Below are positions 3,301 through 53,389 of a DNA stretch of 64,000 nt, piece after piece; positions within the stretch are counted from its first letter, which is position 1, and every line of letters starts with the position of its first letter. The stretch is from the IMG/VR virus record IMGVR_UViG_3300042934_000519, positions 1-64,000 of that record. One strand, 5' to 3'. The stretch is from a virus. The translations under genes and the position numbers were made by a program. The notes beneath the pieces were generated by a model that did no database searches, was not told the origin of the DNA, and saw only the letters and a list, made by a program, of their open reading frames with translations.

Positions 3301-3430
3301 GGGAGAGGATTTACCTATCTTATGTACAGGCAGTTTCGACTGCACGTAAGGGGGTGATCCAGCCTAGTTCCTTCCCGGAACGGTGAGCATTGCCGCGAGG
3401 CATCGTATACGTTCCACGGCGCCTGTGCAT

Positions 3431-3458
3431 GACCTGTCTCCGTTGCTGGGGACAGGTC
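3431..3458 (+). terminator. Hairpin terminator
   Basis: 11-bp stem (3431-3441 with 3448-3458, one G-T pair) with a 6-nt loop, followed by CACTTATGCCCTATCTTTACTTTT, the usual terminator tail in this genome. The stretch 3301-3596 otherwise holds only short ORFs that I do not consider genes. Confidence 0.6.
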
Positions 3459-3596
3459 ACTTATGCCCTATCTTTACTTTTCGGAGTACACCCATCTACA
3501 GGACTCGACCTTATGCCTAATACCGCACCAATGATGACTGGTTGGAGTCGGATGATCATTTCTATCCGGCGCCGTATTACACGGAGTAAAGTGAGG

Positions 3597-3899
3597 ATGT
3601 TCACCGCAGCCGGTGAGATCCTTTCCCAGAAAAAGGAATGGTACGGTTCAGCCAACACCATTGATGGCGTCTTCACCTTTGATTACACCAACGCAGGGTT
3701 TACCAAGGTCCTGCATGTCGAGCCCGTGGCGGTCTATGTAGACACCACGTTCAATAACCAAGTCATTGCCTGCATGAACTCCGTAACGCTTACCAAGGCC
3801 ACTGGACGTACGGTCACAGGAGGCACTTCTGTTGTTGCCGGAAGCGGATTGACTAAGAAAGCAATCGTTTTGGTGATGATAAAAGTTGTAGGTTATTGA
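3597..3899 (+). CDS. Small fibre-like C-terminal domain protein
   Basis: 100 aa from ATG 3597, which has ACGGAG about 10 bases upstream. An in-frame ATG at 3513 would add 28 Arg-rich residues and is possible. The sequence is beta-rich (FTFDYTNAGFTKVLHVEPVAVYVD and a final AIVLVMIKVVGY strand). It resembles the small beta-sandwich domains found at the ends of phage tail fibres. It is the last gene of the adhesin block before the tRNA region. The exact family is not recognised. Confidence 0.6.
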   Translation: MFTAAGEILSQKKEWYGSANTIDGVFTFDYTNAGFTKVLHVEPVAVYVDTTFNNQVIACMNSVTLTKATGRTVTGGTSVVAGSGLTKKAIVLVMIKVVGY

Positions 3900-3905
3900 T
3901 ATCGT

Positions 3906-3937
3906 GTAAAAAATTCCTACACTGGTGTTTAGTATGT
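3906..3937 (+). promoter_or_regulatory. Candidate promoter in front of the tRNA region
   Basis: GTGTAAAAAATT (3904-3915) is followed, 19 bases after the A-run, by TATGTGAAGAA at 3933. The same A-block/17-19/TATGT pattern occurs before the structured RNA regions at 31764-31794 and 46216-46244, and at 9905-9935. Not experimentally known. Confidence 0.4.
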
Positions 3938-4021
3938 GAAGAACCCGCCGCCTACACCCCAACGGTTCCCATCGACCGTCAGCGCTTCGCCTTGAGCGAT
4001 TGCTTACGGCGACGGGTCTTC
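3938..4021 (+). ncRNA. Long-stem structured RNA element before tRNA-Asp
   Basis: The ends pair (3938-3952 with 4008-4021) to give about 13 bp with one bulge and one mismatch, enclosing some 55 nt. It lies between the candidate promoter and the first tRNA. It could be a processing signal or a small RNA; no family is recognised. Confidence 0.4.
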
Positions 4022-4026
4022 ACCCT

Positions 4027-4103
4027 GCTTCGTTAGCTCAGTTGGTCAGAGCACTAGCCTGTCACGCTAGGGGTCACCGGTTCAAGTCCGGTACGAGGCG
4101 CCA
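4027..4103 (+). tRNA. tRNA-Asp (GTC)
   Basis: 77 nt including encoded CCA. The acceptor GCTTCGT/ACGAGGC pairs with one T-G. The D-stem is GCTC/GAGC, the anticodon stem is CTAGC/GCTAG with the 7-nt loop CTGTCAC (U33 present), and the T-loop is TTCAAGT. Confidence 0.96.
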
Positions 4104-4104
4104 T

Positions 4105-4181
4105 TGGCGATTAGCTCAGATTGGTAGAGCAAACGGCTGTTAACCGTTGGGTCCCTGGTTCGAGTCCAGGATCGCCAGCCA
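4105..4181 (+). tRNA. tRNA-Asn (GTT)
   Basis: 77 nt with encoded CCA, one base after tRNA-Asp. The acceptor TGGCGAT/ATCGCCA is perfect. The anticodon stem is ACGG/CCGT with loop CTGTTAA, and the T-arm is CCTGG TTCGAGT CCAGG. Confidence 0.96.
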
Positions 4182-4221
4182 ATTTCACGATCATCCTATA
4201 GCCCTTCAATGGAGACTTAGG

Positions 4222-4479
4222 ATGATTAAGTTCTGGAAGTACCATTCATTGTCTATCAGTTTGTCCATCGTCTTCTTGGCGATGTTGATAGCCAGTTGGC
4301 CGCTAGGTCGTACCCTCTGGGACGGCAAGGGCGAATACTTCTACTTCTGGCTGGGACAGACAATCTTCAGCCTTGAAGCGGATGTGTTTGGGGGAATCAT
4401 TCTGGTGCTGTTTACCAAGTGGTTCAAAGAGCGCCACAGCGCTTCCTCTAATCCTCCTAAAAATCATACAGCCATGTAG
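4222..4479 (+). CDS. Small membrane protein in the tRNA cluster
   Basis: 85 aa from ATG 4222, with GGAG at 4211-4214. There are two hydrophobic stretches, about residues 10-31 (SISLSIVFLAMLIASW) and 47-66 (YFWLGQTIFSLEADVFGGIILVLF), then a basic tail. The last codons and the TAG stop lie inside tRNA-Met (overlap 4470-4479). The function is unknown; a phage-encoded inner-membrane protein is the most I can say. Confidence 0.7.
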   Translation: MIKFWKYHSLSISLSIVFLAMLIASWPLGRTLWDGKGEYFYFWLGQTIFSLEADVFGGIILVLFTKWFKERHSASSNPPKNHTAM

Positions 4480-4545
4480 CTCAGTCGGTAGAGCAGAAGA
4501 CTCATAATCTTTTGGTCGGTGGTTCAAATCCACCCGTGGCTACCA
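4470..4545 (+). tRNA. tRNA-Met (CAT), elongator type or tRNA-Ile2
   Basis: 76 nt with encoded CCA. The acceptor AGCCATG/CGTGGCT is fully paired, so this is not an initiator (no 1-72 mismatch). The anticodon loop is CTCATAA and the T-loop TTCAAAT. CAT could also be read as Ile (lysidine type), which sequence alone does not settle. Confidence 0.94.
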
Positions 4546-4585
4546 GTCTTTTCCAATCTTATGGTCACCACCAGAGAGAATGGAA

Positions 4586-5260
4586 ATGCACGTTGATATC
4601 TCGCAGTACAAAATCGCTACACCGTTGCCTGTCTCCTTGACCAACCCAGTTGCTTTGGAAGTCATGGGCGCGTACGCCTTGGCTAACTGCTCAAGCTGCG
4701 TTGTCCAGTTGGAAGACGGTTCCATTCAGTTCACTGCCCTGACTAAAGGTGCAGCCAGCAAGAGCGTTCATCGCACTCGCACTGAATGGAAGGAAGCGGA
4801 GTACTGGGCCCTTTCGAGCGCTGCCCATCACTGGAGCCGCCAAGAGATAACGCTGGTCAAGGTCAACTCTGCTCAGAAAGTCGTCGTGGCTCAAGTCCAC
4901 GTCAAGAACGCCAACACACCGGCATTGAAGGTGTTCTGGAACAAAGGCAAACTCACCATTGGCTTCCGTGCCAGTTTTGACAACCCTGAGCTTCAGAACC
5001 TGACGATCCTGGACAACGTGCCACTGGGCGTTCCGTTCAAGATTGCAGTGCATGTAACGAAGGCAGGTTCCGTCTCGGTCTCGGCGATGTGTCAAGGGCG
5101 TAAGTCCTCGCACCCACCGCTGCGTCTGGACAGCTCATGGCAAGACCGTGTCCTTCAGTTCCATGGCGGCATCTACAACCAGATCGATTACTCGTCGACC
5201 ACTCACAAGGACGACGGCTCGGTCTGCATCATTACGGAGTTGTCCACAACTCACGAATGA
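4586..5260 (+). CDS. Alginate lyase-like protein (polysaccharide lyase family 7)
   Basis: 224 aa from ATG 4586, with GAGAG at 4574-4578; ATG 4580 is possible but too close to that site. All three PL7 signature motifs are present in order: RTEWK (residues 65-69, family R-T/S-E-L-R), QVH (103-105, family Q-I/V-H) and GGIYNQ (194-199, family YFKAGxYxQ). These supply the catalytic Arg, Gln, His and Tyr of the family. PL7 enzymes cut alginate by beta-elimination. There is no signal peptide and no fibre-type N-terminus, so it is either a free enzyme released at lysis or an attached depolymerase. It sits alone between tRNA-Met and tRNA-Trp, as a late-acquired gene would. Activity is inferred. Confidence 0.78.
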   Translation: MHVDISQYKIATPLPVSLTNPVALEVMGAYALANCSSCVVQLEDGSIQFTALTKGAASKSVHRTRTEWKEAEYWALSSAAHHWSRQEITLVKVNSAQKVVVAQVHVKNANTPALKVFWNKGKLTIGFRASFDNPELQNLTILDNVPLGVPFKIAVHVTKAGSVSVSAMCQGRKSSHPPLRLDSSWQDRVLQFHGGIYNQIDYSSTTHKDDGSVCIITELSTTHE

Positions 5261-5268
5261 CGTTTAAA

Positions 5269-5344
5269 GGGTGAGTAGTTCAATTGGCAGAGCGCTGGTC
5301 TCCAAAACCAGATGTTGCAGGTTCGACTCCTGCCTTGCCCGCCA
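5269..5344 (+). tRNA. tRNA-Trp (CCA)
   Basis: 76 nt with encoded CCA. The acceptor is GGGTGAG/CTTGCCC, the anticodon stem CTGGT/ACCAG with loop CTCCAAA, and the T-arm GCAGG TTCGACT CCTGC. It starts 8 bases after the alginate-lyase-like gene. Confidence 0.96.
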
Positions 5345-5353
5345 GTTCCTTTT

Positions 5354-5399
5354 CCTCAGCGTGTCCTATCTACCCTAGGCACCGAACTGCACGCTGAGG
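5354..5399 (+). ncRNA. 10-bp-stem RNA hairpin between tRNAs
   Basis: CCTCAGCGTG (5354-5363) pairs perfectly with CACGCTGAGG (5390-5399) across a 26-nt loop. The remainder of 5400-5580 holds no ORF or tRNA that I can support. A processing element is possible. Confidence 0.4.
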
Positions 5400-5580
5400 A
5401 TCATAGCTCCACGACCCCACGACACGAGCCTGACGGTTGCACCAGTCTTGTATCAGGGAAGTTCACCGCCATACCCCGACGCACCGTACCGTGATCTGGC
5501 AACGCAGTCACGACTACCGCGCACCCTTGACCTAAGCGATAACAAGGTCACCCGCCACTGGGTAACGTGGCACACTTTCC

Positions 5581-5668
5581 GGAGAGGTTCCCGAGTGGTC
5601 AAAGGGATCAGACTGTAAATCTGACGTGCGACCGCACTTCGAAGGTTCGAATCCTTCTCTCTCCACCA
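5581..5668 (+). tRNA. tRNA-Tyr (GTA)
   Basis: 88-nt class II tRNA with encoded CCA. The acceptor is GGAGAGG/TCTCTCC, the anticodon stem-loop CAGA CTGTAAA TCTG, the variable arm long, and the T-arm AAGG TTCGAAT CCTT. Confidence 0.95.
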
Positions 5669-5700
5669 ATTTCATGGGTACGATCGCGGTAACGTCATAG

Positions 5701-5788
5701 CGTCGAGTAGCTCAAAGCAAAAGAGCAGCCCTAGTAACACGTAAGGGTTGGTTGGAGGTAGAGTCCGAAATCCTCCCTCGACACCCCA
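5701..5788 (+). tRNA. Degenerate tRNA-like gene A (11-nt anticodon loop)
   Basis: The stems of a tRNA are present: acceptor CGTCGAG/CTCGACA (6 of 7 pairs, C1-A72 mismatch), D-stem GCTC/GAGC, anticodon stem GCCCT/AGGGT and T-stem GGAGG/CCTCC. All three loops are abnormal. The D-loop AAAGCAAAA lacks GG, the anticodon loop AGTAACACGTA is 11 nt with no assignable anticodon, and the T-loop is 13 nt without TTC. The 3' end reads CCCCA. It is a decayed tRNA or a tRNA-shaped RNA with another role. Confidence 0.45.
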
Positions 5789-5870
5789 CCGTGAAAGCGG
5801 ATTAACAATAGACGTTATTAAAGGCCGAAAGGCTGGACACTGATCAACCCGCCCTTTAAAGAGACACGCC

Positions 5871-6074
5871 ATGCTTGAGTCCATTGAAGAGAACCAGACT
5901 TATCGGTCTCCTAGTGGCCTTGAGTTCAAGGTGTTGTCACTTGCAAGACACGCTCAAGACTGTTCATGGCCCATGGTCGTGTACACTAATCTGGAGCCTA
6001 CCAAAGACGCTCCTACTGGAACCGTCTGGGTAATCGCAGAGAGCATCTTCCTGCGAACGTTTTCATTGTTGTAA
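5871..6074 (+). CDS. DUF1653-like small protein
   Basis: 67 aa. ATG 5871 has AAAGAGA about 7 bases upstream. The order YRSPSGLEFKVLSLARHAQD, then MVVYTNLEP, then TVWVIAESIFLRTF fits the DUF1653 pattern (Y-HYKG-Y-V-A-HSET, LVVYR, WVRP-F). The function of that family is unknown. It is flanked by two abnormal tRNA-like genes, and its stop lies 3 bases before the second. Confidence 0.65.
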   Translation: MLESIEENQTYRSPSGLEFKVLSLARHAQDCSWPMVVYTNLEPTKDAPTGTVWVIAESIFLRTFSLL

Positions 6075-6076
6075 TC

Positions 6077-6151
6077 CCCTGGATAGCTCAGTCTGGTAGA
6101 GCAGCGACCCCTGGTTGCATGTCGTAGGTTCGAATCCTACTCTCGGGGCCA
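6077..6151 (+). tRNA. Atypical tRNA-like gene B (5-nt anticodon loop)
   Basis: 75 nt ending in GCCA. The D-arm (GCTC AGTCTGGTA GAGC) and T-arm (GTAGG TTCGAAT CCTAC) are canonical. The acceptor CCCTGGA/TCTCGGG has one T-C mismatch. The anticodon stem GCGAC/GTTGC closes on only CCCTG, two nucleotides short of the normal loop and without U33, so no anticodon can be assigned with confidence. Either a 2-nt deletion pseudogene or a tRNA not meant to decode. Confidence 0.6.
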
Positions 6152-6155
6152 TTTC

Positions 6156-6272
6156 TGACAAACTCACACTCGCAGGCCATGGAGGGTGGGACATGCTGTA
6201 CGGCGTTCCTAGATCGCCAGCGGTGACCGCGTAGCCCCGTAACCAATCGGAAACGTGCCACTGAGTTTGTCA
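6156..6272 (+). ncRNA. Long-stem structured RNA element
   Basis: TGACAAACTCA (6156-6166) pairs perfectly with TGAGTTTGTCA (6262-6272). Inside are further hairpins, such as GGCG/CGCC around CCTAG and GCGGT-G-ACCGC. It has no ORF and begins 5 bases after tRNA-like gene B. A structured RNA or processing unit; family unknown. Confidence 0.45.
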
Positions 6273-6283
6273 TTCGTTTTAAT

Positions 6284-6361
6284 TGGGGTGTCGCCTAGTC
6301 TGGCCTAAGGCAACGGGTTTTGATCCCGTGAGCATTGGTTCGAATCCAATCACCCCTTCCA
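6284..6361 (+). tRNA. tRNA-Gln (TTG)
   Basis: 78 nt with encoded CCA. The acceptor TGGGGTG/CACCCCT has an open 1-72 pair, as is usual for tRNA-Gln. The anticodon stem is ACGGG/CCCGT with loop TTTTGAT, and the T-arm is TTGG TTCGAAT CCAA. Confidence 0.93.
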
Positions 6362-6383
6362 TTTCGCATTGGAGATCTGCACG

Positions 6384-6599
6384 ATGTGCAACCGTTTAGG
6401 TAAACGCAAGCGCCTTCTCCAAGGCAAGACAGCTGACCTCCCCTTCTCTTTGAAAGGGTTAGCAGGTTACTGTCCGAACCCTTCTGACTTCGTCTCATCC
6501 GTGCCCAGTTCGGTCAAACGTACAGGCGTGCTTCACATTACGGAGCATCCAGACGGCAGCGTCCAGTCGGTCCTCGTTCCCGATTCAACAGTATCATAG
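6384..6599 (+). CDS. Small hypothetical protein overlapping tRNA-Ile
   Basis: 71 aa from ATG 6384, with GGAG at 6371-6374 (9-base spacer). It begins MCNRLGKRKRLLQGK and has no recognised domain. Its stop lies inside tRNA-Ile (overlap 6590-6599), the same arrangement as the small gene at 4222. Moderate confidence because it is short. Confidence 0.55.
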   Translation: MCNRLGKRKRLLQGKTADLPFSLKGLAGYCPNPSDFVSSVPSSVKRTGVLHITEHPDGSVQSVLVPDSTVS

Positions 6600-6666
6600 C
6601 TCAGCTGGCTAGAGCGCCGCCCTGATAAGGCGGAGGTCCGTGGTTCAAGTCCACGTGGTACTACCA
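6590..6666 (+). tRNA. tRNA-Ile (GAT)
   Basis: 77 nt with encoded CCA. The acceptor is AGTATCA/TGGTACT, the anticodon stem CCGCC/GGCGG with loop CTGATAA, and the T-arm CGTGG TTCAAGT CCACG. Confidence 0.96.
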
Positions 6667-6733
6667 TCTACTGATCAATCCGTGCTTGCTCCGTAAACAG
6701 CGCATGCTGATGAAAGACCTGGCGGATAGATCC

Positions 6734-6811
6734 TGTTCTGTAGCTCAGTTGGCCAGAGCGTCGACCCGCATACGTCGAAGGTCCCTAGTTCGAGTCTAGG
6801 CAGAACGACCA
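6734..6811 (+). tRNA. tRNA-like gene C with 8-nt anticodon loop
   Basis: 78 nt with discriminator A and encoded CCA. The acceptor TGTTCTG/CAGAACG, D-arm (GCTC AGTTGGCCA GAGC), variable AGGTC and T-arm (CCTAG TTCGAGT CTAGG) are all canonical. Only the anticodon loop departs: TCGAC closes with GTCGA on the 8-nt loop CCGCATAC, which lacks U33. The anticodon could be read as CGC, GCA or CAT. Eight-nt loops are known in +1 frameshift-suppressor tRNAs; whether this one works that way is unknown. Confidence 0.65.
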
Positions 6812-6895
6812 TTTTCCTTGTAATGCCCGTCCATCGTGGTCTTAGGCGCCCTGGTGCTGCCGAGTACGAACACGGTGCGCTGGGCACCTTTTCAC

Positions 6896-6998
6896 AGCAC
6901 TGTATCTCAGTTGGCAGAGACTCTTCCCTGACTGGCCCTTCGGGGTTCGGTCAACCATTTGAAGAAGGTCGGTGGTTCGAATCCATCCAGTGCTACCA
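6896..6998 (+). tRNA. tRNA-like gene D with hairpin inserted in the anticodon loop
   Basis: 103 nt with encoded CCA. The acceptor AGCACTG/CAGTGCT is perfect, the D-arm is TCTC/GAGA, the anticodon stem TCTTC/GAAGA, the variable AGGTC and the T-arm GGTGG TTCGAAT CCATC. The anticodon loop spans 6927-6960 (34 nt instead of 7). It contains its own hairpin, GACTG/CGGTC outside and CCC-TTCG-GGG inside. This is far too short for a group I intron. No anticodon can be assigned. Confidence 0.6.
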
Positions 6999-7006
6999 TG
7001 TAATGT

Positions 7007-7084
7007 CCAATCCCCGTACTCGCCGTCGCTCCTCGGACGCCTTTGAGCATTCCGATAGAGGGGCGAACCGACGACGGGGATTGG
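7007..7084 (+). ncRNA. Structured RNA element closing the tRNA cluster
   Basis: CCAATCCCCGT (7007-7017) pairs perfectly with ACGGGGATTGG (7074-7084), enclosing 56 nt. It is 78 nt long, the size of a tRNA, but has no TTC loop. It starts 9 bases after tRNA-like gene D. Confidence 0.4.
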
Positions 7085-7101
7085 GCTCCCAACACTAGAG
7101 T

Positions 7102-7125
7102 GCGGCCTTAGGGTCGCTTTCTTTT
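7102..7125 (+). terminator. Hairpin followed by T-rich tract
   Basis: GCGGCC-TTAG-GGTCGC (7102-7117) is followed by TTTCTTTT. It may end the tRNA transcript or be part of a longer structured RNA. Confidence 0.45.
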
Positions 7126-7484
7126 GTCGCTGTAACGTGATTGTGCTGAAGCGCGCCTTCGTCCAAAACTTAGCTTCTAACTCCTTTGATCGGGAAATTA
7201 GCAGTGAGGACTCATGCCCGTCGGAAGAGTTGATCACTCGAACTCTGAGGCGGTGGTTGTGAATTCCGGTAGAACCCGAAATCCGGATGGCGTATTCTTG
7301 GCCGCCAAGTGCGGTGCAAGGGATGAAACAGGCGCAGTTGTGGGGACGTTACATTTCGAAGTATTGGCTGGCTGACGGGACCTGTGGAAAGGTTACTGCG
7401 CTAAGCCATAATACCGCGGTCTCGGGTCTTCGGAATTAAGTGGTTGAGTTTCCCCTCAGCTGCAAGAGGCACTATTTCATAAAG
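7126..7484 (+). ncRNA. Gene-free structured region, candidate ncRNA
   Basis: About 360 bases with no supportable ORF on either strand. Local hairpins include GAGTT/AACTC near 7224 and CCGG/CCGG near 7266. It ends at a clear intrinsic terminator (7485-7506), as a transcribed RNA gene would. Family not recognised; I see no RNase P or tmRNA signatures. Confidence 0.4.
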
Positions 7485-30155: not shown

Positions 30156-30689
30156 ATGACCACGATAGTTTTCAAAGATGGCCATTTGGCCGCGGACACC
30201 CTCGCAGTAACAGGTAACTCAGTGACTTACCTGATTCCCCACAAGAAGATCAGTCTCAGTACCGATAAGCGCATTGCTTACGGGATCTCTGGGATGGTGA
30301 TTGAACCCGAATGGGTCCCTGATTTGGAACGAGCGCTTTTGGCGTTCGTCATGGAACACCGCAATGCCAAGAGCTTCAAAGCTCCGATGCCCAAGGAACT
30401 CGTTGACCTGATCGAACACCGTGACTTCATCCTCATGACCAAAGATCAGGTCTACACCAAATACGACGGCGTCTCCCCGGACGGGTCTCGTTTCATGTCT
30501 CGCCTGCTGCCCGGTGAACATGCCTCGGTGGGCACTGGTAAACTCTACGCCACCATGGCTTGCTTGTACGGGCATACTGCCCGTGGAGCCGTCCAGTTCG
30601 CCATGGAGAACGATTGCTTCACGTACCCTGGTGACATTGACACCATCAAGCAAACGTCGCTCAAACCGCTGCCTAAGGAGGTCAAATGA
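30156..30689 (+). CDS. HslV/proteasome-like Ntn hydrolase
   Basis: 177 aa. The start MTTIVFKDGHLAADT fits the N-terminus of proteasome beta and HslV subunits, where removal of Met leaves a catalytic Thr. D14 and K30 or K31 (HKKISLS) sit where the D17 and K33 partners belong. IAYGISG (41-47) replaces the usual A..G.G loop. Phages do carry such proteins with unknown partners. It could cut virion or host proteins. No ATPase partner lies next to it, and the nearest AAA+ gene is at 40467. Confidence 0.65.
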   Translation: MTTIVFKDGHLAADTLAVTGNSVTYLIPHKKISLSTDKRIAYGISGMVIEPEWVPDLERALLAFVMEHRNAKSFKAPMPKELVDLIEHRDFILMTKDQVYTKYDGVSPDGSRFMSRLLPGEHASVGTGKLYATMACLYGHTARGAVQFAMENDCFTYPGDIDTIKQTSLKPLPKEVK

Positions 30690-31231
30690 GCCAGGTCGTC
30701 GTCTACCGGGATGAGAGTCTGCTCTTCTCCACCAACATGTACACCATGAGCCTGACCACCGTACGCGTGCCGCTCGATTACTGGGTGTGCAAAGCCGGAC
30801 TGCTCATTCCGATCAACCAGACTGCTCCGGCGCTGATCAACTTCTTCAACGGCAAGAACACGGCGCCAATGAGTACCGAGTCCACGCCTCACGGGATTCT
30901 GGTGACCATCACAGGTGACATTTACCACGTCGAGATCAAACTCGAGCAAGGTAAGAGCCCGGAAGAAGGTGAACGCTTTGGCAAGTTGTACCCAACGGGT
31001 CCCGGCATCAGTTGGGTCCACTCCATCGGTGATGTCTCAGCAGGTAAAGCCGAAGCCGCCATGCGGCTGGCCAAGGACATGAACGAGGTCAAGAAGCTGA
31101 TGATCACGGCGGACGTATTCAACGCCAAGCAGCTGGAGATCTACACGATGAAGGACCTCATCGAAAAGATCTCAGTGATCCATGTCAAGAAATTCCCAGA
31201 AGACTGGAAGGAGAAAAAGAATGCAGTATGA
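30686..31231 (+). CDS. Hypothetical protein coupled to the Ntn hydrolase
   Basis: 181 aa, overlapping the previous gene by ATGA with AAGGAG upstream. Contains GISWVHSIGDVSAGKAEAAM (111-130), reminiscent of the helix entry of proteasome-like folds, but it has no N-terminal Thr. Might be an inactive partner; this is speculative. Confidence 0.66.
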   Translation: MSQVVVYRDESLLFSTNMYTMSLTTVRVPLDYWVCKAGLLIPINQTAPALINFFNGKNTAPMSTESTPHGILVTITGDIYHVEIKLEQGKSPEEGERFGKLYPTGPGISWVHSIGDVSAGKAEAAMRLAKDMNEVKKLMITADVFNAKQLEIYTMKDLIEKISVIHVKKFPEDWKEKKNAV

Positions 31232-31766
31232 CATGCACAGTGAATACCCTGTCATCCTTCGCCAGACCGACGAAGGTGTAATTGGGACGTGGTACGAGAA
31301 CCGCTTCAAAGACCCGGCCATCATCTTAAAGGATCTTGAAGCCTATCCTGACCTTAAAGAGAAGGTGGCTAAGATCCACGAGTACGCAGCGACTCACGGC
31401 GGCAAGATGCCGGAGTTCAAACACAAAGTGGAGATCTTCAGTCGCGTTCGTCATCTGGCCAGCATCACCAAAGGGTACAGCCCCTTTGATCTGGTGGAAT
31501 TGACAGGACCTGCCTACTTTGAACCGCTGTCACATCCTGAATGGGCGGTCTCCGGTGAATCGACGATCGAGTGGGACATCCCGGACGACCGCGACGATAC
31601 TGAGTCGAAGTTTTCCATGCAGTTAGATGGAACGGTCCTTAAGAGCCTCAGTGCTTGGAACGTTTCAGAAGAGCAATGGCTGCCTGTGGACAAGATCTTC
31701 ATTCCGTTCAACACCCTGATGACCGACAAGATCGTCGGCTTTGACCTGGTGCCGATCATCGTGTAA
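31221..31766 (+). CDS. Hypothetical protein
   Basis: 181 aa from ATG 31221, with AGGAG at 31208-31212; it overlaps the preceding gene by 11 bases. Charged alpha/beta protein (EWDIPDDRDDTESKFSMQLDG). Third member of the Ntn-hydrolase operon. Family unknown. Confidence 0.66.
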   Translation: MQYDMHSEYPVILRQTDEGVIGTWYENRFKDPAIILKDLEAYPDLKEKVAKIHEYAATHGGKMPEFKHKVEIFSRVRHLASITKGYSPFDLVELTGPAYFEPLSHPEWAVSGESTIEWDIPDDRDDTESKFSMQLDGTVLKSLSAWNVSEEQWLPVDKIFIPFNTLMTDKIVGFDLVPIIV

Positions 31767-31797
31767 TAAAATACACGGTGGCAAAGTGCTATGTGAA
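31764..31797 (+). promoter_or_regulatory. Candidate promoter for the large RNA region
   Basis: GTGTAATAAAAT (31761-31772) is followed after 18 bases by TATGTGAAAAG at 31790. The same layout occurs at 3904-3940 and 46216-46250. Confidence 0.4.
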
Positions 31798-32640
31798 AAG
31801 CGAGCAGTAACCCCTTAACTAAGGACAGTCAATGTTCTCAACCAACGGGGTGTTCTCTCTCCTTCGTAAGATCGTGTCGCAGATTCGCTGTCAGGTTAGA
31901 CTGACCCGAGTCTTGGCACGGTTAAACCGGGAGAGGGCCCCTTCGGCGCCAAAGACGCTAATGCTGCGTGGGACGCAGTCACGCCACGACCATAAGGCGG
32001 TCGGTTAGGCGTCGGCTGCGACGAGATTAGAAAATCTTACAGCTTAATGAGGGGGTCGCGCTCCTCTAAGGATGGAAATTGGGGTTTACCGCAATCATCT
32101 GCGGGTTAATGCTGTACTGCAACACGGCCGTGAGCGATCTGTCTTTCAGACCGGCTGCACGCCCGGAGATTCCGTTAGTGATAGCTGCTCGCGATTTGTC
32201 GCTGGTAGCTGTAAACGCCTTCGTGCCCGCGCTTCACCCGTACAGTCCGCCCTACCAGGCTGACTCTGGGACGATGGCCCCACTGACGAACATGCACAGT
32301 CCAGCGTTGCTAATGCAGATGAGTACTACGGTCGTACCACGCCCAGGGTTCCAGACCCTGTAAGCCACTGGAACGATCGGAGTGCACACACATAGCTGCA
32401 CCCGTGAGCGGATTGAGTTCCGTACTTGATGTAAGAGGCAGTTGTCTCTCATTGGCAAGCACGTGTGTCAGGCTCGAAGACTGCGGTTGGGTCTAATCGC
32501 TGCGATTACCCTAGGATCAGATCTTCCCCTGCACCCTTGTCAAGATGCTAAACAATGATCCGCCACCCCTTCACGATTCCACTTCCTAGTCGCACTGGGC
32601 AGCCGAGAATCATAAGGGGCGGCGTTCATTCCTTTATGCC
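31798..32640 (+). ncRNA. Candidate large structured non-coding RNA
   Basis: About 840 bases without a convincing gene, in a genome where gaps rarely pass 150 bases. Many hairpins: CTGCGT/ACGCAG, GTTCCAG/CTGGAAC, GGGT-AATCG-CTG-CGATT-ACCC (32489-32511), and a long terminal stem CGCCACCCCTT (32561-32571) with AAGGGGCGGCG (32614-32624). It is followed by TTTATGCCG and TTTCTTTTTTCTTT. Its size recalls ornate large phage RNAs such as GOLLD or ROOL; I cannot confirm a match. A TTG-start 94-codon ORF (32079-32363) with AAGGA upstream is the only protein alternative. Confidence 0.55.
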
Positions 32641-32682
32641 GTGATCTTATGTACGCTTTCTTTTTTCTTTGGGTATGCTGAC

Positions 32683-33126
32683 ATGAGTACGGTAGAAGCA
32701 GTGGATGCTCCAGTTCCTTTGGTGGAACTGATCAACGGTAAATTCAGCTATTTCGACACGCGTCGTGTTGATAAGCACAACCACTCAATGCTTAACCCTT
32801 TCCGTCGACTCGACGAAGTGGTCGGTGACATTCAGGTTCCCCAGTGGAACGTGACTGACTTCGCCTCCATTAACACCCTCCGAGATTTAGGTCTGTTCAT
32901 TATCTTTGCCTTGCTGGCAGGGTACGGTGATCAGTCCGCCACCATCCACGACTACCTCTACGGCGGTGGTCTTCCTGTCAGCGGTCAAGTGATCTATCGC
33001 AAAGACGCTGATGACATCTATTACCGTGCCCTACGAGCTGAAGGTGTGGCTCGCTGGCGTGCCGGTATCTTCTACGCGGGTGTTCGCCTCTTTGGGGCTT
33101 CCCGTTGGAAAGGAGCCGTTCAATGA
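32683..33126 (+). CDS. DUF1353 family protein
   Basis: 147 aa from ATG 32683; the longer frame upstream lies in the T-rich terminator tail. The core matches DUF1353: NVTDFASIN then LGLFIIFALLAGYGDQSATIHDYLYGGG (HD-Y motif), DADDIYYRALRAEGV and FYAGVRLFG. The family is common in phages; its biochemical role is unknown. It overlaps the next gene by ATGA. Confidence 0.85.
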   Translation: MSTVEAVDAPVPLVELINGKFSYFDTRRVDKHNHSMLNPFRRLDEVVGDIQVPQWNVTDFASINTLRDLGLFIIFALLAGYGDQSATIHDYLYGGGLPVSGQVIYRKDADDIYYRALRAEGVARWRAGIFYAGVRLFGASRWKGAVQ

Positions 33127-33419
33127 GTGCACCCCTGTTTACCGTCCACAGTTCGTTGGCGGCCATCCCCGGTGACAAAGGCAAGTGGCTGGAGTCGTAC
33201 CGTCTGGCGGACCACATGCTGATCCTGATGGAGTGCTGGCGTAAAGTGCCTGCCACCCAATTGGTCGGTGATGAGTTCCAAGCGGTCAAAGGCATGCTCA
33301 GCTTCATCATGGCTTCCTCCGGTACGCACCTTGATGCTGTCCTGACGGCTCAGTCCATGGAAGAGCTGTTTGCCATCCAGAAAGAGTTCCAAGCCATTTG
33401 CAAGTCCCGCTGCACATAG
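33123..33419 (+). CDS. Hypothetical helical protein
   Basis: 98 aa, ATG 33123 overlapping the DUF1353 stop, with AAAGGAG upstream. Mostly helical (ADHMLILMECWRKVPATQL). Translationally coupled to the DUF1353 gene, so perhaps a partner. Family unknown. Confidence 0.66.
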   Translation: MSAPLFTVHSSLAAIPGDKGKWLESYRLADHMLILMECWRKVPATQLVGDEFQAVKGMLSFIMASSGTHLDAVLTAQSMEELFAIQKEFQAICKSRCT

Positions 33420-46698: not shown

Positions 46699-47067
46699 AT
46701 GAAATGGTACACCCTCGCCATTCCTCAATGGCGTAAAGCGAAAGCATTGGGGATTGAGACGTTGGACATCACGGTCAAGTCAGGTGATAAACGCTTTGCC
46801 CCGTACGATGAAGTGCTGTGGGCCTACAAGCGCGGTGAGGTGTCTGATGAGGAGTACACCGAGATCTATCGCAGTAAGCTTACTAAGTTGCTCCACAGCG
46901 ATCCTAAGGCCATTGAGGACCTATTGACCGCAGAGGGTGAAGCAAAGGCTGTCATGTGTTACTGCACCGTAGGCAAGTTCTGTCACCGGCACATCTGGAT
47001 GGAGTTCATGCAGGATGTCGCAGACGATAACGGTATCCACTTCGAGCACTGTGGGGAAATAGTATGA
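46699..47067 (+). CDS. DUF488-like protein
   Basis: 122 aa. The order FAPYDEVLWAYKRGEVSDEE, then a Y..KL helix, then VMCYCTVGKFCHRHIW fits DUF488 proteins (CYE/C..FCHRH). The Cys-His cluster may bind metal. Role in phages is unknown. AAGGAC precedes ATG 46699. Confidence 0.72.
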   Translation: MKWYTLAIPQWRKAKALGIETLDITVKSGDKRFAPYDEVLWAYKRGEVSDEEYTEIYRSKLTKLLHSDPKAIEDLLTAEGEAKAVMCYCTVGKFCHRHIWMEFMQDVADDNGIHFEHCGEIV

Positions 47068-47097
47068 CGCTCCATTCCTACACCCTTCAGGTGACGT

Positions 47098-47640
47098 ATG
47101 TCCAACGATTGCGATCAGTTTCTATTTGACCCCGAGAAGTCCGCCCTTGAGAACTTCTTTGCCCTTGTGTACCGTCGCAACAAAGTACGCCTGACGGATA
47201 AAGATGTAGCGGTGGGGGTACCTGTCTTCATCAACGATGACCCTGACGGTGATAACACCAAAGTCCGCTTGGACGGTAAACCCGGTGGACGATTCAAGAA
47301 CGGCGGTGACTGGTTCTACGCCCGTGCTGACATCGAGACCTATTACCCGGTCTACGACATTGACTTAGCTGCACTGGAAGGCATTACTACCAAAGCCCAG
47401 TTGATTGAATACATCGATGACCAGTTTGATCTGGTGGACGGTGAGTTTGACTTGGACCTTGAAGACCCGATTGGTTCTTTGATGGCCTACACCTCGATCA
47501 ACCTCAAAGCCAAACCGGCTTCTCTGATCTACATCGGTCAGAAGACCATCAACCTCTTCTGGTCTGGCGGTATCCGTCGGGTCACTGAAGAAGGCGTGAT
47601 GCGTGTAACAGACGATGGCCGTGTACGCGTACTCGACTAA
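47098..47640 (+). CDS. Probable virion protein
   Basis: 180 aa, 30 bases after DUF488. The end reads FWSGGIRRVTEEGVMRVTDD, a repeat style (R-V-T-E/D-G) found in structural proteins of large phages. It converges with the fibre genes. Role inferred. Confidence 0.62.
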   Translation: MSNDCDQFLFDPEKSALENFFALVYRRNKVRLTDKDVAVGVPVFINDDPDGDNTKVRLDGKPGGRFKNGGDWFYARADIETYYPVYDIDLAALEGITTKAQLIEYIDDQFDLVDGEFDLDLEDPIGSLMAYTSINLKAKPASLIYIGQKTINLFWSGGIRRVTEEGVMRVTDDGRVRVLD

Positions 47641-47642
47641 CA

Positions 47643-47683
47643 GCATAGAGCCCCAGAGCCGTAGTGGCTCTGGGGCTCTATGC
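47643..47683. terminator. Bidirectional terminator, 18-bp stem
   Basis: 47643-47660 pairs perfectly with 47666-47683. GCATAGA/TCTATGC boxes form the base of the stem. Lies between convergent genes. Confidence 0.92.
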
Positions 47684-47700
47684 GTCACGCTACTGCGTCG

Positions 47701-49608
47701 TTAGACAGCAGGTGGGGTCTCGCCTTCGATCTCGGTCGCAGCGTCGTTGAACGCAGCGGTCAGAGAGTCAACCAGGCCTTGCAGCGCGGTGTCGCCCGAT
47801 TCCATGCTCAGTGCCAAGGCATCGAGTTCTGGTTTCAGGGTAGCCGGGGTCACGAACTTGGCAGCTTCGGTACCGGCAGTCACTTCGGCTTGCGAAGCGG
47901 TGACGTCAGCGAAGGACTTGCCACCCAGCAATGCCGAGTCTGCTGCTTGTTCGGTTTTGCCCAGCTTGTCGTCAACGGCAGTGATCAGGGCAGCCAGTGC
48001 ATCGCCTTCCTGAGTCAGCTTGTCAGCCAGTTCCTTCAGGGTGTCGAGTGCAGTCGGAGCACCGTCAACCAACGCGCTGATTGCATCGTCTACCTTGGCT
48101 TTGAGGGCCAGAGCAGTGATGTACTTCGCATCGTCGGTACCAGCGATGGCTTCAGCCGAAGTGGCCTTTTCCAGACCGCCAGCTTCTGCCTGAGCGATGT
48201 AGGCATCCAGCGCATCCTGAACAGCCTGGATGGTTTGAACGTCGCCACCACGGATGGTCGCCAGGATTTGCTCGAGGGTCTGGCCTTCCAGCTTGCTGGA
48301 ATCGACAGCAGTACCAGTCGCAGGCAGCGCAGCGTCAGCGGTAGCCTTGGCAGCATCAGCAGTGGCTTGAGCAGCAACGGCTTTACCGTCAGCAACCTCA
48401 GCAGCGTCACCAGCCAATTGAACAGCAGCGTCCACAGCTTCGATGGAAGTGTTGTGGCCAGACAGGATGTCTTTCAGCGCTTGTGGTTCAGCACCTTCGG
48501 TCACCACGACAGGGTTGTTACCCAGATCGCTGGTTTCAGTCAGGAAGCCAGAACCGCCACCGGTGGCTTCTTCCAGCGCGGTGATACGAGCAGCCAGCGG
48601 ATCGGTGATCGCTTTGGTGGCAACGTCGGCATCAGCGATGAACTGAGCGAGGGTCTTACCGCCGAACTTCGCAGAGTCAGCAGCAGTTTCCAGTTTGCCC
48701 AGCTTGTCAGCCAGAGACGAGACGATGGCCGCAACGGCGTCGTCTTGGTCAGCCAGCTTGTCAGCCAGCTCTTTGAGGGTGTCCAAGGCTTCTGGAGCGC
48801 CATCAACGAGGGCGTTGACCGCTTGAGCCACACCGGCTTTCACACCAGCAGCGGTGACGAACTTGGCGTCGTCAGTACCGGCTTCCACTTCTTCAGCAGT
48901 GGCCTTGGCAGGGATCAGGGCTTCAACAGCGTCCAGGTCATCCTGGATACCGGCGAAGATCTGAGCGAAGGTCTGTGCGCCAACGCTGTAGCCAGCGAAG
49001 TCGTCAGTCTTCTTGACCACTTCGGAGAGGTCCACACCGCCAGTAGCGGCGTCGAGGATCTCAGCGAGGGTCTTGCCTTCCAGCTTGCTGGAGTCAGCGG
49101 CAACGCCGGTCTTGTCCAGTTTGTTACCGACCGAGGTCAGCAGCTGGTTGATGACGTCCGGGTTGTTCTGAAGCGCAGCAGCGATTTCAGCGATGGTGTC
49201 CAGGGTCTCTGGAGCAGCGCCGACCTTGCTGGCCCAGAAGGCCGCCAGGTTTGCTGGAACGAGGTAGCGGTCAACGCCAGTGGCGGTAACAGCTTCAGCG
49301 TCGGTAGCCGGAGCGTAGTTCTCGACCTTGTCCAGACCCACTTGGGCCTTGGTCACCTGATGCGGGTTATCGCGACGGGCGATGAACGCGTTCAGGATGG
49401 TTTCGAGTGCGTCGATCTCAGCGTCAGTGGCGCTGGTGATCTCTGCCTTGACCTGAGCCAAGGTTTTGCCTTCGAAGAGGCTGGAGTCAGCAGCACGCTC
49501 GGTCTTACCGAGTTTGAGGCCGAGTTGAATTTTCAGCGCAGCGTTGAAGGCCGCGATGGATTGAAGCAGTTGAGCAAGTCTTTCAGGACTCAGAGGCATG
49601 ATCTGCAC
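47701..49608 (-). CDS. Repeat-rich tail fibre protein
   Basis: 635 aa, Ala-rich, strong codon bias. The unit KLGKTEQAADSALLGGKS recurs five times in variant form at about residues 32, 162, 301, 428 and 547. A second unit, ALVDGAPxALDTLKELADKL, occurs near 266 and 512, with a weaker copy at 129. RDNPHQVTKAQVGLDKVENY (79-98) is the repeat typical of tail-fibre shafts. It probably forms a trimeric fibre. ATG 49608 or 49599 may start; the end of the next gene overlaps by 26 bases. Confidence 0.85.
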   Translation of the reverse strand: MQIMPLSPERLAQLLQSIAAFNAALKIQLGLKLGKTERAADSSLFEGKTLAQVKAEITSATDAEIDALETILNAFIARRDNPHQVTKAQVGLDKVENYAPATDAEAVTATGVDRYLVPANLAAFWASKVGAAPETLDTIAEIAAALQNNPDVINQLLTSVGNKLDKTGVAADSSKLEGKTLAEILDAATGGVDLSEVVKKTDDFAGYSVGAQTFAQIFAGIQDDLDAVEALIPAKATAEEVEAGTDDAKFVTAAGVKAGVAQAVNALVDGAPEALDTLKELADKLADQDDAVAAIVSSLADKLGKLETAADSAKFGGKTLAQFIADADVATKAITDPLAARITALEEATGGGSGFLTETSDLGNNPVVVTEGAEPQALKDILSGHNTSIEAVDAAVQLAGDAAEVADGKAVAAQATADAAKATADAALPATGTAVDSSKLEGQTLEQILATIRGGDVQTIQAVQDALDAYIAQAEAGGLEKATSAEAIAGTDDAKYITALALKAKVDDAISALVDGAPTALDTLKELADKLTQEGDALAALITAVDDKLGKTEQAADSALLGGKSFADVTASQAEVTAGTEAAKFVTPATLKPELDALALSMESGDTALQGLVDSLTAAFNDAATEIEGETPPAV

Positions 49609-50101
49609 CTTGTGGATCAGGGAGGTTGGTGTTGGAGATGTTCTCGGTCATAGCATCGAATTCCAAGGCCATCTTGGTAAACGCTGTATCTAGTTCATCA
49701 CTGAGGGTGTAGTCACCTGCTGGGCGACCGCCGAGATTGTTAGAGTCGTTAACAGTACCTGCTCTCGCCTCCGCAATGATTTCTTCTTTGGTGCTGCCGC
49801 CTAACTTCAGGGAGTTGACAGCAACATCATCGACGCCCAGCTTGTCCTTGAGAAGCTCTACCATCTGCTCAATAGTGTAGGAACCCACCTGTTCCGCGGT
49901 AACCTTGTTAGGGTTATCACGGCGTTTGGCGTACATCCCCAATACAGAGTTAAGCGTGGTACGGAACGATTTACGCCCCGTACCACCGCCGTCAAGACGA
50001 GTAGCGATCGAGATCTCGATGCTATCGTCCCCAGACAGCAGGTCCAGTTCAAGCGGATCTAGCTGAGCAATCGAGACGGTGAGGTTTTGATTGCCCATCA
50101 C
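49583..50101 (-). CDS. Fibre-associated protein
   Basis: 172 aa, upstream of and overlapping the large fibre gene by 26 bases. Contains RDNPNKVTAEQVGSYTIEQM and two degenerate copies of the fibre unit (VAVNSLKLGGSTKEEI and VNDSNNLGGRPAGDYTL). Perhaps the fibre base that joins to the tail. Role inferred. Confidence 0.72.
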   Translation of the reverse strand: MMGNQNLTVSIAQLDPLELDLLSGDDSIEISIATRLDGGGTGRKSFRTTLNSVLGMYAKRRDNPNKVTAEQVGSYTIEQMVELLKDKLGVDDVAVNSLKLGGSTKEEIIAEARAGTVNDSNNLGGRPAGDYTLSDELDTAFTKMALEFDAMTENISNTNLPDPQGADHASES

Positions 50102-51157: not shown

Positions 51158-53389
51158 TTAGAACACGATTTCGCACACACCGCCAGCGCAACCAGCCGCG
51201 CCCATGGTGTCAACTTCGGTGTAGACCTGTTGGTTCAGTTCCACGGCGAAGTCAATCGCTTTGAGGTCACGAGTGATCGCTTCCCATTTGTGCAGGTTGT
51301 GCACGTCTTTGAGGCAGTAGGTCATCTTCAACTTATCGCCACCGAAATGGTTCTCGGCGAACTTGTTGGCACGACGTACCCAGTCACGCTTCAGGAGGTC
51401 CGCAGAGTTGTCTTCGCTCAGCGGGGCAGCGTTACCCAAGGCCGTAGAGCAAGCGCGCCACAGGTCGTCGTTGAAGGCGTGGCAGCCATCGACGATCAGG
51501 CCCGAGGCGAACATGGTCGCCGAGCCGTACATTTCCAGCAGCTGCTCTGGCGTGAAGACTTCGGTGAACGGAGCCTGCACGTAGTCGCGATCGCCCGAGG
51601 TGCCCAGCAAGCTGATGCCTGCGAAGAACTGACGGTTGTCGAAGATGTACTGTTCCACTTCAGCCCAATCGTCCACCGAGATGGTGTTGGAGATGTTGTG
51701 GCTCAGCCAGTCAGTGACGCAGTGCTCTGGGTTACGACCTTCGTTGATCCAGACTTCCTGAGCCTTCTTGACGAACTCCAGCTGCTTCTTGCCGTACAGG
51801 TCGGACTTGAAGATACTGCCTTCGTTGGCCACGATCGGGAACGAGATGACGACGTCGGTACCACTTGGGTTCCAGCGCGACAGCTCGGACATTTTCGGGT
51901 TGGCTTTCTCGATCAACTGAGTGACCGCATCCTGGTTGGTCATCTGCACGTTACGGAAGTAACGCTTGGCGTGGTCGCCATGGATACCCGAAGCGCAGCC
52001 CAACAACACCGAGGCATTGCCCGATGGCTTGCAGGTGGTGGTACGCGCTGCTGGCTTGATGCCGATCAGTGCAGCCACTTGCTTGTTGATCTTGCGGACC
52101 AGGTGCGCAGCATCACGCATGTTGTCTTCGTTGAACAGCACGTCCGGGTTGGTCATCCAACCGGTGATCGAGACGCCCAGCAGGGCTTCACGTTCGGTGA
52201 TGTCCGCCGAAGCTTGGTCCAGGTAGCTGAAGTTGGTGTAGCCCGCTTGCAGGGTACCGAGAATGGCACCGGCCTTGGAGGCGTACATCAGCTTCTCACG
52301 GGTGTCACAGAACGCACCGTTGGTTTCGGTCAGGTTGCACTTCTGGAAGCCCGAACGGCCGTCTTCGGTGTAACCACGCAGGCCGATCTCAACGCACGGG
52401 TTGAACAGCGCGTCAGCGTCGTCAGCGAAGATGAAGCCCGGCTCACCGAACTCTTTGGTGCGCTTCATGATGCTGGCCCATTCATCACGGGTCAGTTCAT
52501 CGCGGATCACCAGCACGGAGTTGTTGGAACGGCCACGCTGGGCGTTCTCTTCGTACCAGGCGCCCGTCTTGGCATTCATCATCTCTTCGTCGTCTTTGCC
52601 GAAGAGGGCGATGCAAGCAGCGCGACGGATACCGCCGGACAGAACAGCGTCAGCCATGTGCATAACGAAGTCGTAAGCGACGATCGAACGCATGTCGACA
52701 GTGCCGTCTACGTCTTTGGTTTCACGCTCGAGCAGCTTGCGGCACTGTTCCAGCGAACGCACGAGGCCATCAGGACCTGGGGCTTTGAAGCCGCCGGAGA
52801 TCATGGCACCACGAGGACGGATCTGGCTCACGTCGAAGTGAACAGTCTTGCCTTCGTATTCAGGGAACTCACCGCCACCGACGAAGTAGGACGCCAGCAG
52901 CACACCGAACGCGTCAGACCAACCTTCGATCGAATCCGGGACGGTATAGCTCATCACGTCAGTACGGCTCACAGGCGCGATTGCAGGCAGCTTGGCGACG
53001 TGTTGCTTTTGTACGGAGAAGCCAACGCCGCAACCACACAGCAGCAGGTACATGGCTTCCTGGAAGAAACGTGGACGGTCGACGTAGGACGCCGAGCAGT
53101 TGTACAGACGCGATTCGTGCTTGAAGATTTGCTCGCCACCGAATTGCAGGGCGCGTTGGCTGCCCAGTACTGCTTTCTCTTTGTACGCTTTCTCTGCGAA
53201 GGCAATGGCCTCCTCCAGCTCAGGACTCATGACATGCGCGTACTTTTGACGGTGCATGTTCATCACGCGCTCTACCGAGCCGTTCCAGTCCTCGTAACGC
53301 CCGATTGCATCATCCCAACGCGAGTAGCCCATGAAGAACTTTGAGTCGGCAAGCATGTTCTTCGCGGTGGTGACGGTTTCGTTGTTCAT
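51158..53389 (-). CDS. nrdJ: Adenosylcobalamin-dependent ribonucleotide reductase (class II)
   Basis: 743 aa, the length of monomeric class II reductases. It turns ribonucleotides into deoxyribonucleotides using vitamin B12 and no oxygen. Key residues: C98 (LYNCSAS) and C351 (FQKCNLTETN) as the redox pair, C332 and E334 in NPCVEIGL (thiyl radical site), and C734/C739 in the C-terminal GCAGGVCEIVF that regenerates the active site. The B12 itself must come from the host or medium. Strong codon bias suggests high expression. Confidence 0.93.
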   Translation of the reverse strand: MNNETVTTAKNMLADSKFFMGYSRWDDAIGRYEDWNGSVERVMNMHRQKYAHVMSPELEEAIAFAEKAYKEKAVLGSQRALQFGGEQIFKHESRLYNCSASYVDRPRFFQEAMYLLLCGCGVGFSVQKQHVAKLPAIAPVSRTDVMSYTVPDSIEGWSDAFGVLLASYFVGGGEFPEYEGKTVHFDVSQIRPRGAMISGGFKAPGPDGLVRSLEQCRKLLERETKDVDGTVDMRSIVAYDFVMHMADAVLSGGIRRAACIALFGKDDEEMMNAKTGAWYEENAQRGRSNNSVLVIRDELTRDEWASIMKRTKEFGEPGFIFADDADALFNPCVEIGLRGYTEDGRSGFQKCNLTETNGAFCDTREKLMYASKAGAILGTLQAGYTNFSYLDQASADITEREALLGVSITGWMTNPDVLFNEDNMRDAAHLVRKINKQVAALIGIKPAARTTTCKPSGNASVLLGCASGIHGDHAKRYFRNVQMTNQDAVTQLIEKANPKMSELSRWNPSGTDVVISFPIVANEGSIFKSDLYGKKQLEFVKKAQEVWINEGRNPEHCVTDWLSHNISNTISVDDWAEVEQYIFDNRQFFAGISLLGTSGDRDYVQAPFTEVFTPEQLLEMYGSATMFASGLIVDGCHAFNDDLWRACSTALGNAAPLSEDNSADLLKRDWVRRANKFAENHFGGDKLKMTYCLKDVHNLHKWEAITRDLKAIDFAVELNQQVYTEVDTMGAAGCAGGVCEIVF

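What the first reader, a model, noticed from the sequence alone, without database searches (positions are those of the whole stretch)
31767..32660. About 850-base gene-free structured region: possible giant phage ncRNA
In a genome with very tight packing, this stretch has no convincing ORF, many local hairpins, a long terminal stem, a candidate promoter at its start and a T-rich end. Giant ornate RNAs (GOLLD, ROOL) occur in phages, often in genomes with tRNAs. This could be one of them or a new class.
Basis: partly seen in the sequence, partly recalled or inferred. Interest (0 to 1): 0.85.

Follow-up and report, generated by a model that had tools for sequence, protein, structure and literature searches.

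The report
Two overlooked genes on structured phage mRNA
The stretch taken for a giant non-coding RNA in this jumbo phage most likely holds two very short, fast-changing protein genes on one folded messenger RNA; relatives occur in at least six other phage lineages, and in most of them the second gene, which encodes a probable secreted protein, seems to start at an unusual start codon (AUC).

Summary
Positions 31767-32640 are the largest gap outside the tRNA cluster, no ORF there looks like the phage's other genes, and the + strand folds better than neighbouring coding DNA. It is not GOLLD, ROOL, OLE or HEARO (no Rfam match even at E<=10) and it is not gene-free. Homologues (9 sequences, about 7 lineages, including Pseudomonas phage pPa_SNUABM_DT01) sit in the same gene order. 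All keep two short frames. A (31832-32008) starts at a Shine-Dalgarno plus ATG/TTG. B carries a signal-peptide-like N-terminus in every lineage and shows dN/dS of 0.16, 0.38 and 0.54 in three close pairs. Its inferred start is TTG here, CTG in two relatives and ATC in six, each 6-9 nt after a Shine-Dalgarno. Three hairpins, in A, at the end of B and just after B, covary (30 both-sided changes, 99% paired). The 5' and 3' thirds fold unusually well. Best reading: a late bicistronic mRNA for two small orphan proteins, with embedded RNA elements. A dual-function or primarily non-coding RNA is not excluded. Protein functions are unknown and no expression data exist.

The parts
31790..31793 (+). TATG, probable phage late promoter; the G (31793) would be the transcription start
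   Evidence: GTGCTATG is kept in window, L018 and L019; CTATGTAGTAGCACTGTGACAT in DT01, G006, G008 and G014, TATGTAGTAGCACTGTGACAT in G007. The phiKZ nvRNAP late promoter is TATG with G as +1 (PMC4666361). DT01 encodes a putative nvRNAP subunit. Inferred, no RNA data.
31821..31825 (+). Shine-Dalgarno AAGGA of ORF A
   Evidence: AAGGA (AAGGA or close variant) a few nt before the start of ORF A in all 9 sequences
31832..32008 (+). ORF A, 58 aa, small gene with a predicted long helix; fast-evolving
   Evidence: Open in 9 sequences (58-90 aa). ATG-to-H1 distance 155/170/173/179 nt, all in the same phase without stops in 4 lineages. DT01 copy is annotated as CDS PA10_00292. dN/dS 0.68, 0.39, 0.52. 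AlphaFold2 helix 4-35, pLDDT 66.
31987..32003 (+). Hairpin H1: 5-bp stem, 7-nt loop AUAAGGC, inside the end of ORF A
   Evidence: Stems CGACC/GGUCG, CGAUC/GGUCG, CACGG/CCGUG, CACGC/GCGUG, CAUGC/GCAUG; 4 of 5 pairs change on both sides, 100% paired
32068..32072 (+). Shine-Dalgarno AAGGA of ORF B, within CTCTAAGGA
   Evidence: CTCTAAGGA in window, L018, L019, DT01, G006 and G007; AAGGAG in G014, GGAG in G020 and G008
32079..32363 (+). ORF B, 94 aa, inferred TTG start; probable secreted protein (signal-peptide-like N-terminus)
   Evidence: Frame open in all 9 sequences; inferred starts TTG, CTG (2), ATC (6). L018/L019 substitutions 2/5/13 by codon position. dN/dS 0.16, 0.38, 0.54. Hydrophobic N-terminus in each lineage.
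32344..32360 (+). Hairpin H2 (CAGGG-UUCCAGA-CCCUG) just before the ORF B stop codon
   Evidence: Stem covaries: CGUGC/GCACG in DT01, G006 and G007, CGUGU/ACUCG in G020; not found in G008 or G014
32409..32422 (+). Hairpin H3 (CGGA-UUGAGU-UCCG), invariant loop UURAGU, after ORF B
   Evidence: In 9 sequences; stems CGGA/UCCG, UCGA/UCGA, CCGA/UCGG
32434..32449 (+). Hairpin H4 (AGAGG-CAGUUG-UCUCU)
   Evidence: A hairpin of different sequence lies at the same place after H3 in the relatives (sequences); judged by eye, not scored
32560..32642 (+). 3' end: long stem CCGCCACCCCTT/AAGGGGCGG and terminator-like motif CCTTTATGCCGT
   Evidence: Hairpin + YTATGCCGT recurs mostly after genes in window and DT01; 13 matches in window against 3.3 expected; a comparable stem in L018/L019

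Best explanation
31790-32642 is a late bicistronic transcription unit. Transcription starts at TATG (inferred). ORF A, a small helical protein of 58-90 aa, is translated from a Shine-Dalgarno and ATG/TTG. ORF B, a small probably exported protein of 94-117 aa, is translated from its own Shine-Dalgarno but from a weak non-AUG start (AUC in most lineages, CUG or UUG in this one and its nearest relatives), presumably to keep its amount low or tied to initiation-factor state or to translation of A. Conserved hairpins at the ends of A and B and after B shape the mRNA, probably coupling translation or protecting the message (inferred). The unit ends at the phage's terminator-like hairpin + TATGCCGT motif. 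B most plausibly acts in the periplasm, for example in lysis timing or superinfection exclusion; this is inference from its signal peptide and size only. Shown by sequence: shared gene order, kept frames, coding-type substitutions in B, covarying hairpins. Inferred: promoter, start codons, terminator, export, function.
For: Homologues in the same gene order: L018/L019 (nhmmer E 2.6e-22 and 4.7e-22), DT01 and G020 through covariance models, G006, G007, G008 and G014 by synteny. ORF B: L018/L019 substitutions 2/5/13 at codon positions, dN/dS 0.16, then 0.38 and 0.54 in two independent pairs; start region has a Shine-Dalgarno and a positively charged, hydrophobic leader ending AxA in DT01, G006 and G007. 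ORF A: same phase to hairpin H1 and no stops in 4 lineages, Shine-Dalgarno plus start in all. Hairpin covariation. Folding: unit mean z -2.17 against -0.58 for controls, p 2.6e-4.
Against: Hexamer scores of both ORFs are negative. Window-to-L018 similarity in frame B (77) is hardly above another frame (69), so that pair alone does not show protein conservation. ORF A is poorly conserved (17/77 identical between G008 and G014) and shows no codon-position bias in L018/L019. The inferred start of B is never AUG. No family match for B in Pfam, PHROGs or PDB. Folding is also raised on the - strand.
Confidence: 0.62

Rival explanations
1. A dual-function or primarily non-coding ornate RNA: 5' and 3' structured domains joined by a middle stretch that happens to carry, or has acquired, a reading frame. 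The RNA is the main product and may work as a complex, as GOLLD and ROOL do.
For: Covarying hairpins with invariant loops lie inside and between the frames. The 5' and 3' thirds are well folded while the middle is not in the newer lineages. ORF A hardly conserves its protein. Atypical codon content.
Against: Two frames open in 9 of 9 sequences with Shine-Dalgarno sequences; coding-type substitutions in B; signal-peptide-like N-terminus of B in every lineage. The global consensus fold is not better than for coding controls, except in the 3' part.
Confidence: 0.25
2. Only ORF B is a real gene; the 5' third is a structured regulatory leader (ORF A a leader peptide or spurious) and the 3' third a structured untranslated region.
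For: ORF A dN/dS 0.68 with no third-position excess in L018/L019; 22% identity in G008/G014; the 5' third folds strongly in most lineages.
Against: ORF A keeps Shine-Dalgarno, start and open frame in all 9 sequences and phase to H1 in 4 tested lineages.
Confidence: 0.1
3. A decaying or non-functional spacer with chance hairpins.
For: No recognisable gene by composition.
Against: Conserved blocks, covariation and synteny in about 7 lineages.
Confidence: 0.03

Closest known systems
GOLLD and ROOL RNAs (phage ornate large RNAs)
   Same: Comparable length (GOLLD often above 800 nt), phage-borne, hairpin-rich; both have a disordered middle linker (PMC12286853)
   Different: No Rfam match at E<=10; not in the tRNA cluster (tRNAs lie at 4-7 kb, the unit at 31.8 kb); carries two kept reading frames
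phiKZ-type late transcription units (TATG promoters of the non-virion RNA polymerase)
   Same: Conserved TATG at the 5' end; DT01 relative encodes a putative phiKZ-like nvRNAP subunit
   Different: No transcription start mapped here; TATG alone is not sufficient in phiKZ
Genes with regulated non-AUG starts (infC AUU in E. coli, from general knowledge)
   Same: Shine-Dalgarno plus rare start codon kept across lineages
   Different: Gene, protein and context unrelated; regulation by IF3 untested
T4 RI-type periplasmic antiholin (from general knowledge, analogy only)
   Same: About 95-100 aa with N-terminal export signal, lytic phage
   Different: No sequence similarity found; holin partner unknown

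Membership tests
GOLLD / ROOL / OLE / HEARO (Rfam) | Match to the family covariance model | tested here: not met
   cmscan, permissive filters, E<=10: no match in 31700-32720; whole window at gathering: tRNAs only; five relatives at E<=1: none of these families
GOLLD / ROOL | Location in or next to a tRNA array | tested here: not met
   tRNAs at 4027-6811 only; no tRNA in the L018 and L019 loci
Non-coding RNA (any class) | No conserved reading frame | tested here: not met
   Two frames kept in 9 sequences; B with dN/dS 0.16-0.54
Conserved structured RNA element | Covariation of paired positions across lineages | tested here: met
   Three hairpins, 99.1% paired, 30 both-sided changes, 0/500 shuffles reach the covariation score; slid controls 21-42% paired. 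Hairpins were picked partly by pairing, so the figure is upward-biased.
phiKZ-type late promoter | TATG with G at +1 | tested here: inconclusive
   TATG kept at the 5' end in most lineages; start site not testable with these tools
Secreted small phage protein (ORF B) | N-terminal signal peptide | tested here: inconclusive
   Hydrophobic leader in each lineage, AxA-like end in DT01, G006, G007; no signal-peptide predictor available

The most novel reading that the evidence does not exclude
A new class of large (about 850 nt) structured jumbo-phage RNA that is both message and ornate RNA: it codes for a fast-evolving small protein and an exported protein started at a conserved AUC codon, while covarying hairpins with conserved loops (AUAAGGC, UURAGU) give the RNA itself a second job.
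Probability: 0.3. Interest if true: 0.7.

Novelty: new variant of a known kind. Interest (0 to 1): 0.45.

Why it matters
It shows how a gene-free call in a jumbo phage can hide short genes with odd starts and odd codon content, which automatic annotation misses: only ORF A is annotated, in DT01. If the AUC start of ORF B is real, it would be a rare conserved non-canonical start in a phage gene, and a handle on how phages set the dose of an exported protein. Covarying hairpins inside coding sequence are a testable case of RNA-level selection on a phage message.

Tried and rejected
Rfam at permissive thresholds: no match. Direct DNA search of the phage collection: no match. The DT01 hit at 172654 was only the recurring terminator-like motif. 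PaBG's 1.5-kb gap upstream of its DUF1353 gene looked like an analogue, but models R1 and R2 found nothing there. The first protein comparison of window and L018 looked convincing, but the frame control showed it mostly reflects DNA similarity; the coding claim therefore rests on the later lineages. RNAalifold column shuffles on three sequences do not separate the unit from coding controls except in the 3' part. A pattern scan with the H1 sequence gave 12 unrelated stretches, about the chance number. AlphaFold2: only the N-terminal helix of B (pLDDT 47 overall) and one helix in A. ORF B profile searches of Pfam, PHROGs, PDB and genome contigs: nothing. Two scripts timed out (without output, partly).

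Full report
What the window is. The window is part of a 72,983-base virus record. Its proteins match phiKZ-related jumbo phages of Pseudomonas; the nearest named relative is pPa_SNUABM_DT01 (65.8% identity over 81% of one structural protein), which encodes a putative phiKZ-like nvRNAP subunit.

The observation. A hexamer gene finder trained on this phage leaves 31767-32640 as the largest gap outside the tRNA region; all ORFs in it score negative. The + strand folds with z -6.4 and the - strand with -2.8. Controls temper this: 861-base coding chunks average z about -2.4, but in 285-base tiles the region averages about -3.0 on the + strand against -0.8 for coding tiles.

Not a known RNA family. 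cmscan of 31700-32720 against all of Rfam at E<=10 returned nothing; the whole window at gathering gave only tRNAs. Relatives gave one sub-threshold match.

Ends. A TATG (31790-31793) is kept at the 5' end. In phiKZ, TATG with the G as +1 is the late promoter of the non-virion RNA polymerase (PMC4666361). At the 3' end CCTTTATGCCGT (32631-32642) belongs to a recurrent hairpin + YTATGCCGT element found mostly after genes in the window and in DT01.

First homologues. A profile of the DUF1353 gene just downstream (A1) led to two IMG/VR contigs, L018 and L019, that carry a related stretch in the same place (nhmmer E 2.6e-22 and 4.7e-22). The L018/L019 pair shows coding-type substitutions in frame B (2/5/13 by codon position) but not in frame A. 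A frame control showed that window-L018 protein similarity is largely explained by DNA similarity, so more lineages were needed.

More lineages. Covariance models from two conserved blocks (R1, R2) found a stretch in DT01 and one in contig G020. Synteny (homologues of 30156-30686 and 33123-33416) then led to G006, G007, G008 and G014. In DT01 the unit lies between homologues of 30686-31231 and 33105-33419.

The frames. ORF A has a Shine-Dalgarno and ATG/TTG start in all nine sequences and is 58-90 aa long. In four lineages its start is 155, 170, 173 or 179 bases before hairpin H1, always in the same phase and without stops. In G014 the phase to H1 differs. ORF B is 94-117 aa with a hydrophobic N-terminus in every lineage. 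The inferred start is TTG (window), CTG (L018, L019) or ATC (DT01, G020, G006, G007, G008, G014), 6-9 bases after a Shine-Dalgarno. dN/dS for B is 0.16, 0.38 and 0.54 and for A 0.68, 0.39 and 0.52 in three close pairs. These starts are inferred from spacing and from the charged start of the leader, not shown.

The RNA structure. Three hairpins recur: H1 in the end of ORF A with loop AUAAGGC (UAAAGGG in G014), H2 at the end of ORF B, H3 after ORF B with loop UURAGU. On nine sequences 99.1% of cells pair, 9 of 14 pairs change on both sides, 30 cells carry both-sided changes; no shuffle reaches the covariation score and slid versions pair at 21-42%. H2 was not found in G008 and G014. Because some hairpins were located by requiring pairing, these figures lean upward. 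In six newer lineages the 5' and 3' thirds mostly fold better than coding controls, and the ORF B third does not.

Verdict. The stretch is most likely a late bicistronic mRNA for two small orphan proteins with RNA elements embedded in and after the frames. It is neither gene-free nor GOLLD/ROOL. That the RNA itself also has a function remains open. Function of A and B is unknown; export of B, and a role in lysis timing or superinfection exclusion, are inference.

Noticed in passing
window 4027-6811: Nine tRNA genes (Asp, Asn, Met, Trp, Tyr, Arg, Gln, Ile and one with a four-base anticodon gcat), with long low-coding gaps between them (3301-4580, 5261-7440).
   Followed up: no
window-wide, e.g. 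12501, 24829, 30128, 34692, 37360, 41774, 60647; also L004, L006, L017: Perfect hairpin followed by YTATGCCGT recurs, mostly after genes, in this phage and in DT01; probably the terminator of the phage RNA polymerase.
   Followed up: partly
L005 3360-4850 (PaBG KF147891 120800-122295): 1.5-kb unannotated gap between a CDS and a tRNA cluster, upstream of the DUF1353 gene; holds an unannotated ORF starting MFLSLCLGLALVCVEPTAPP (Rz1-like look).
   Followed up: partly
L094 (G009 46800-49800): Contig G009 keeps the 3' part of the unit and its downstream genes, but the 5' part is replaced by a 391-codon open frame.
   Followed up: no
L050-L056, L058, L059: The 17-mer CGACCATAAGGCGGTCG occurs in a different conserved context (GGGATCG...TATGAACC) in many contigs, most of them from sample 3300044878; unrelated to this unit.
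   Followed up: partly
L018 3570-4107: The gene directly upstream of the unit in L018 is absent from L019 and the window at this place, so this may be an insertion hot spot.
   Followed up: no
L071 ~1720-1745, L091, L092, L093, L095: The 3' region of the other lineages shares an AARGGTTACGGG-like motif and a CCCAAGACTTC-T-run-GTTTTGCCG-like end that are not obvious in the window.
   Followed up: no
window 51158-53389 and 60693-62285: Ribonucleotide reductase with a B12-dependent (class II) insertion domain and a divergent DnaB-like helicase.
   Followed up: no
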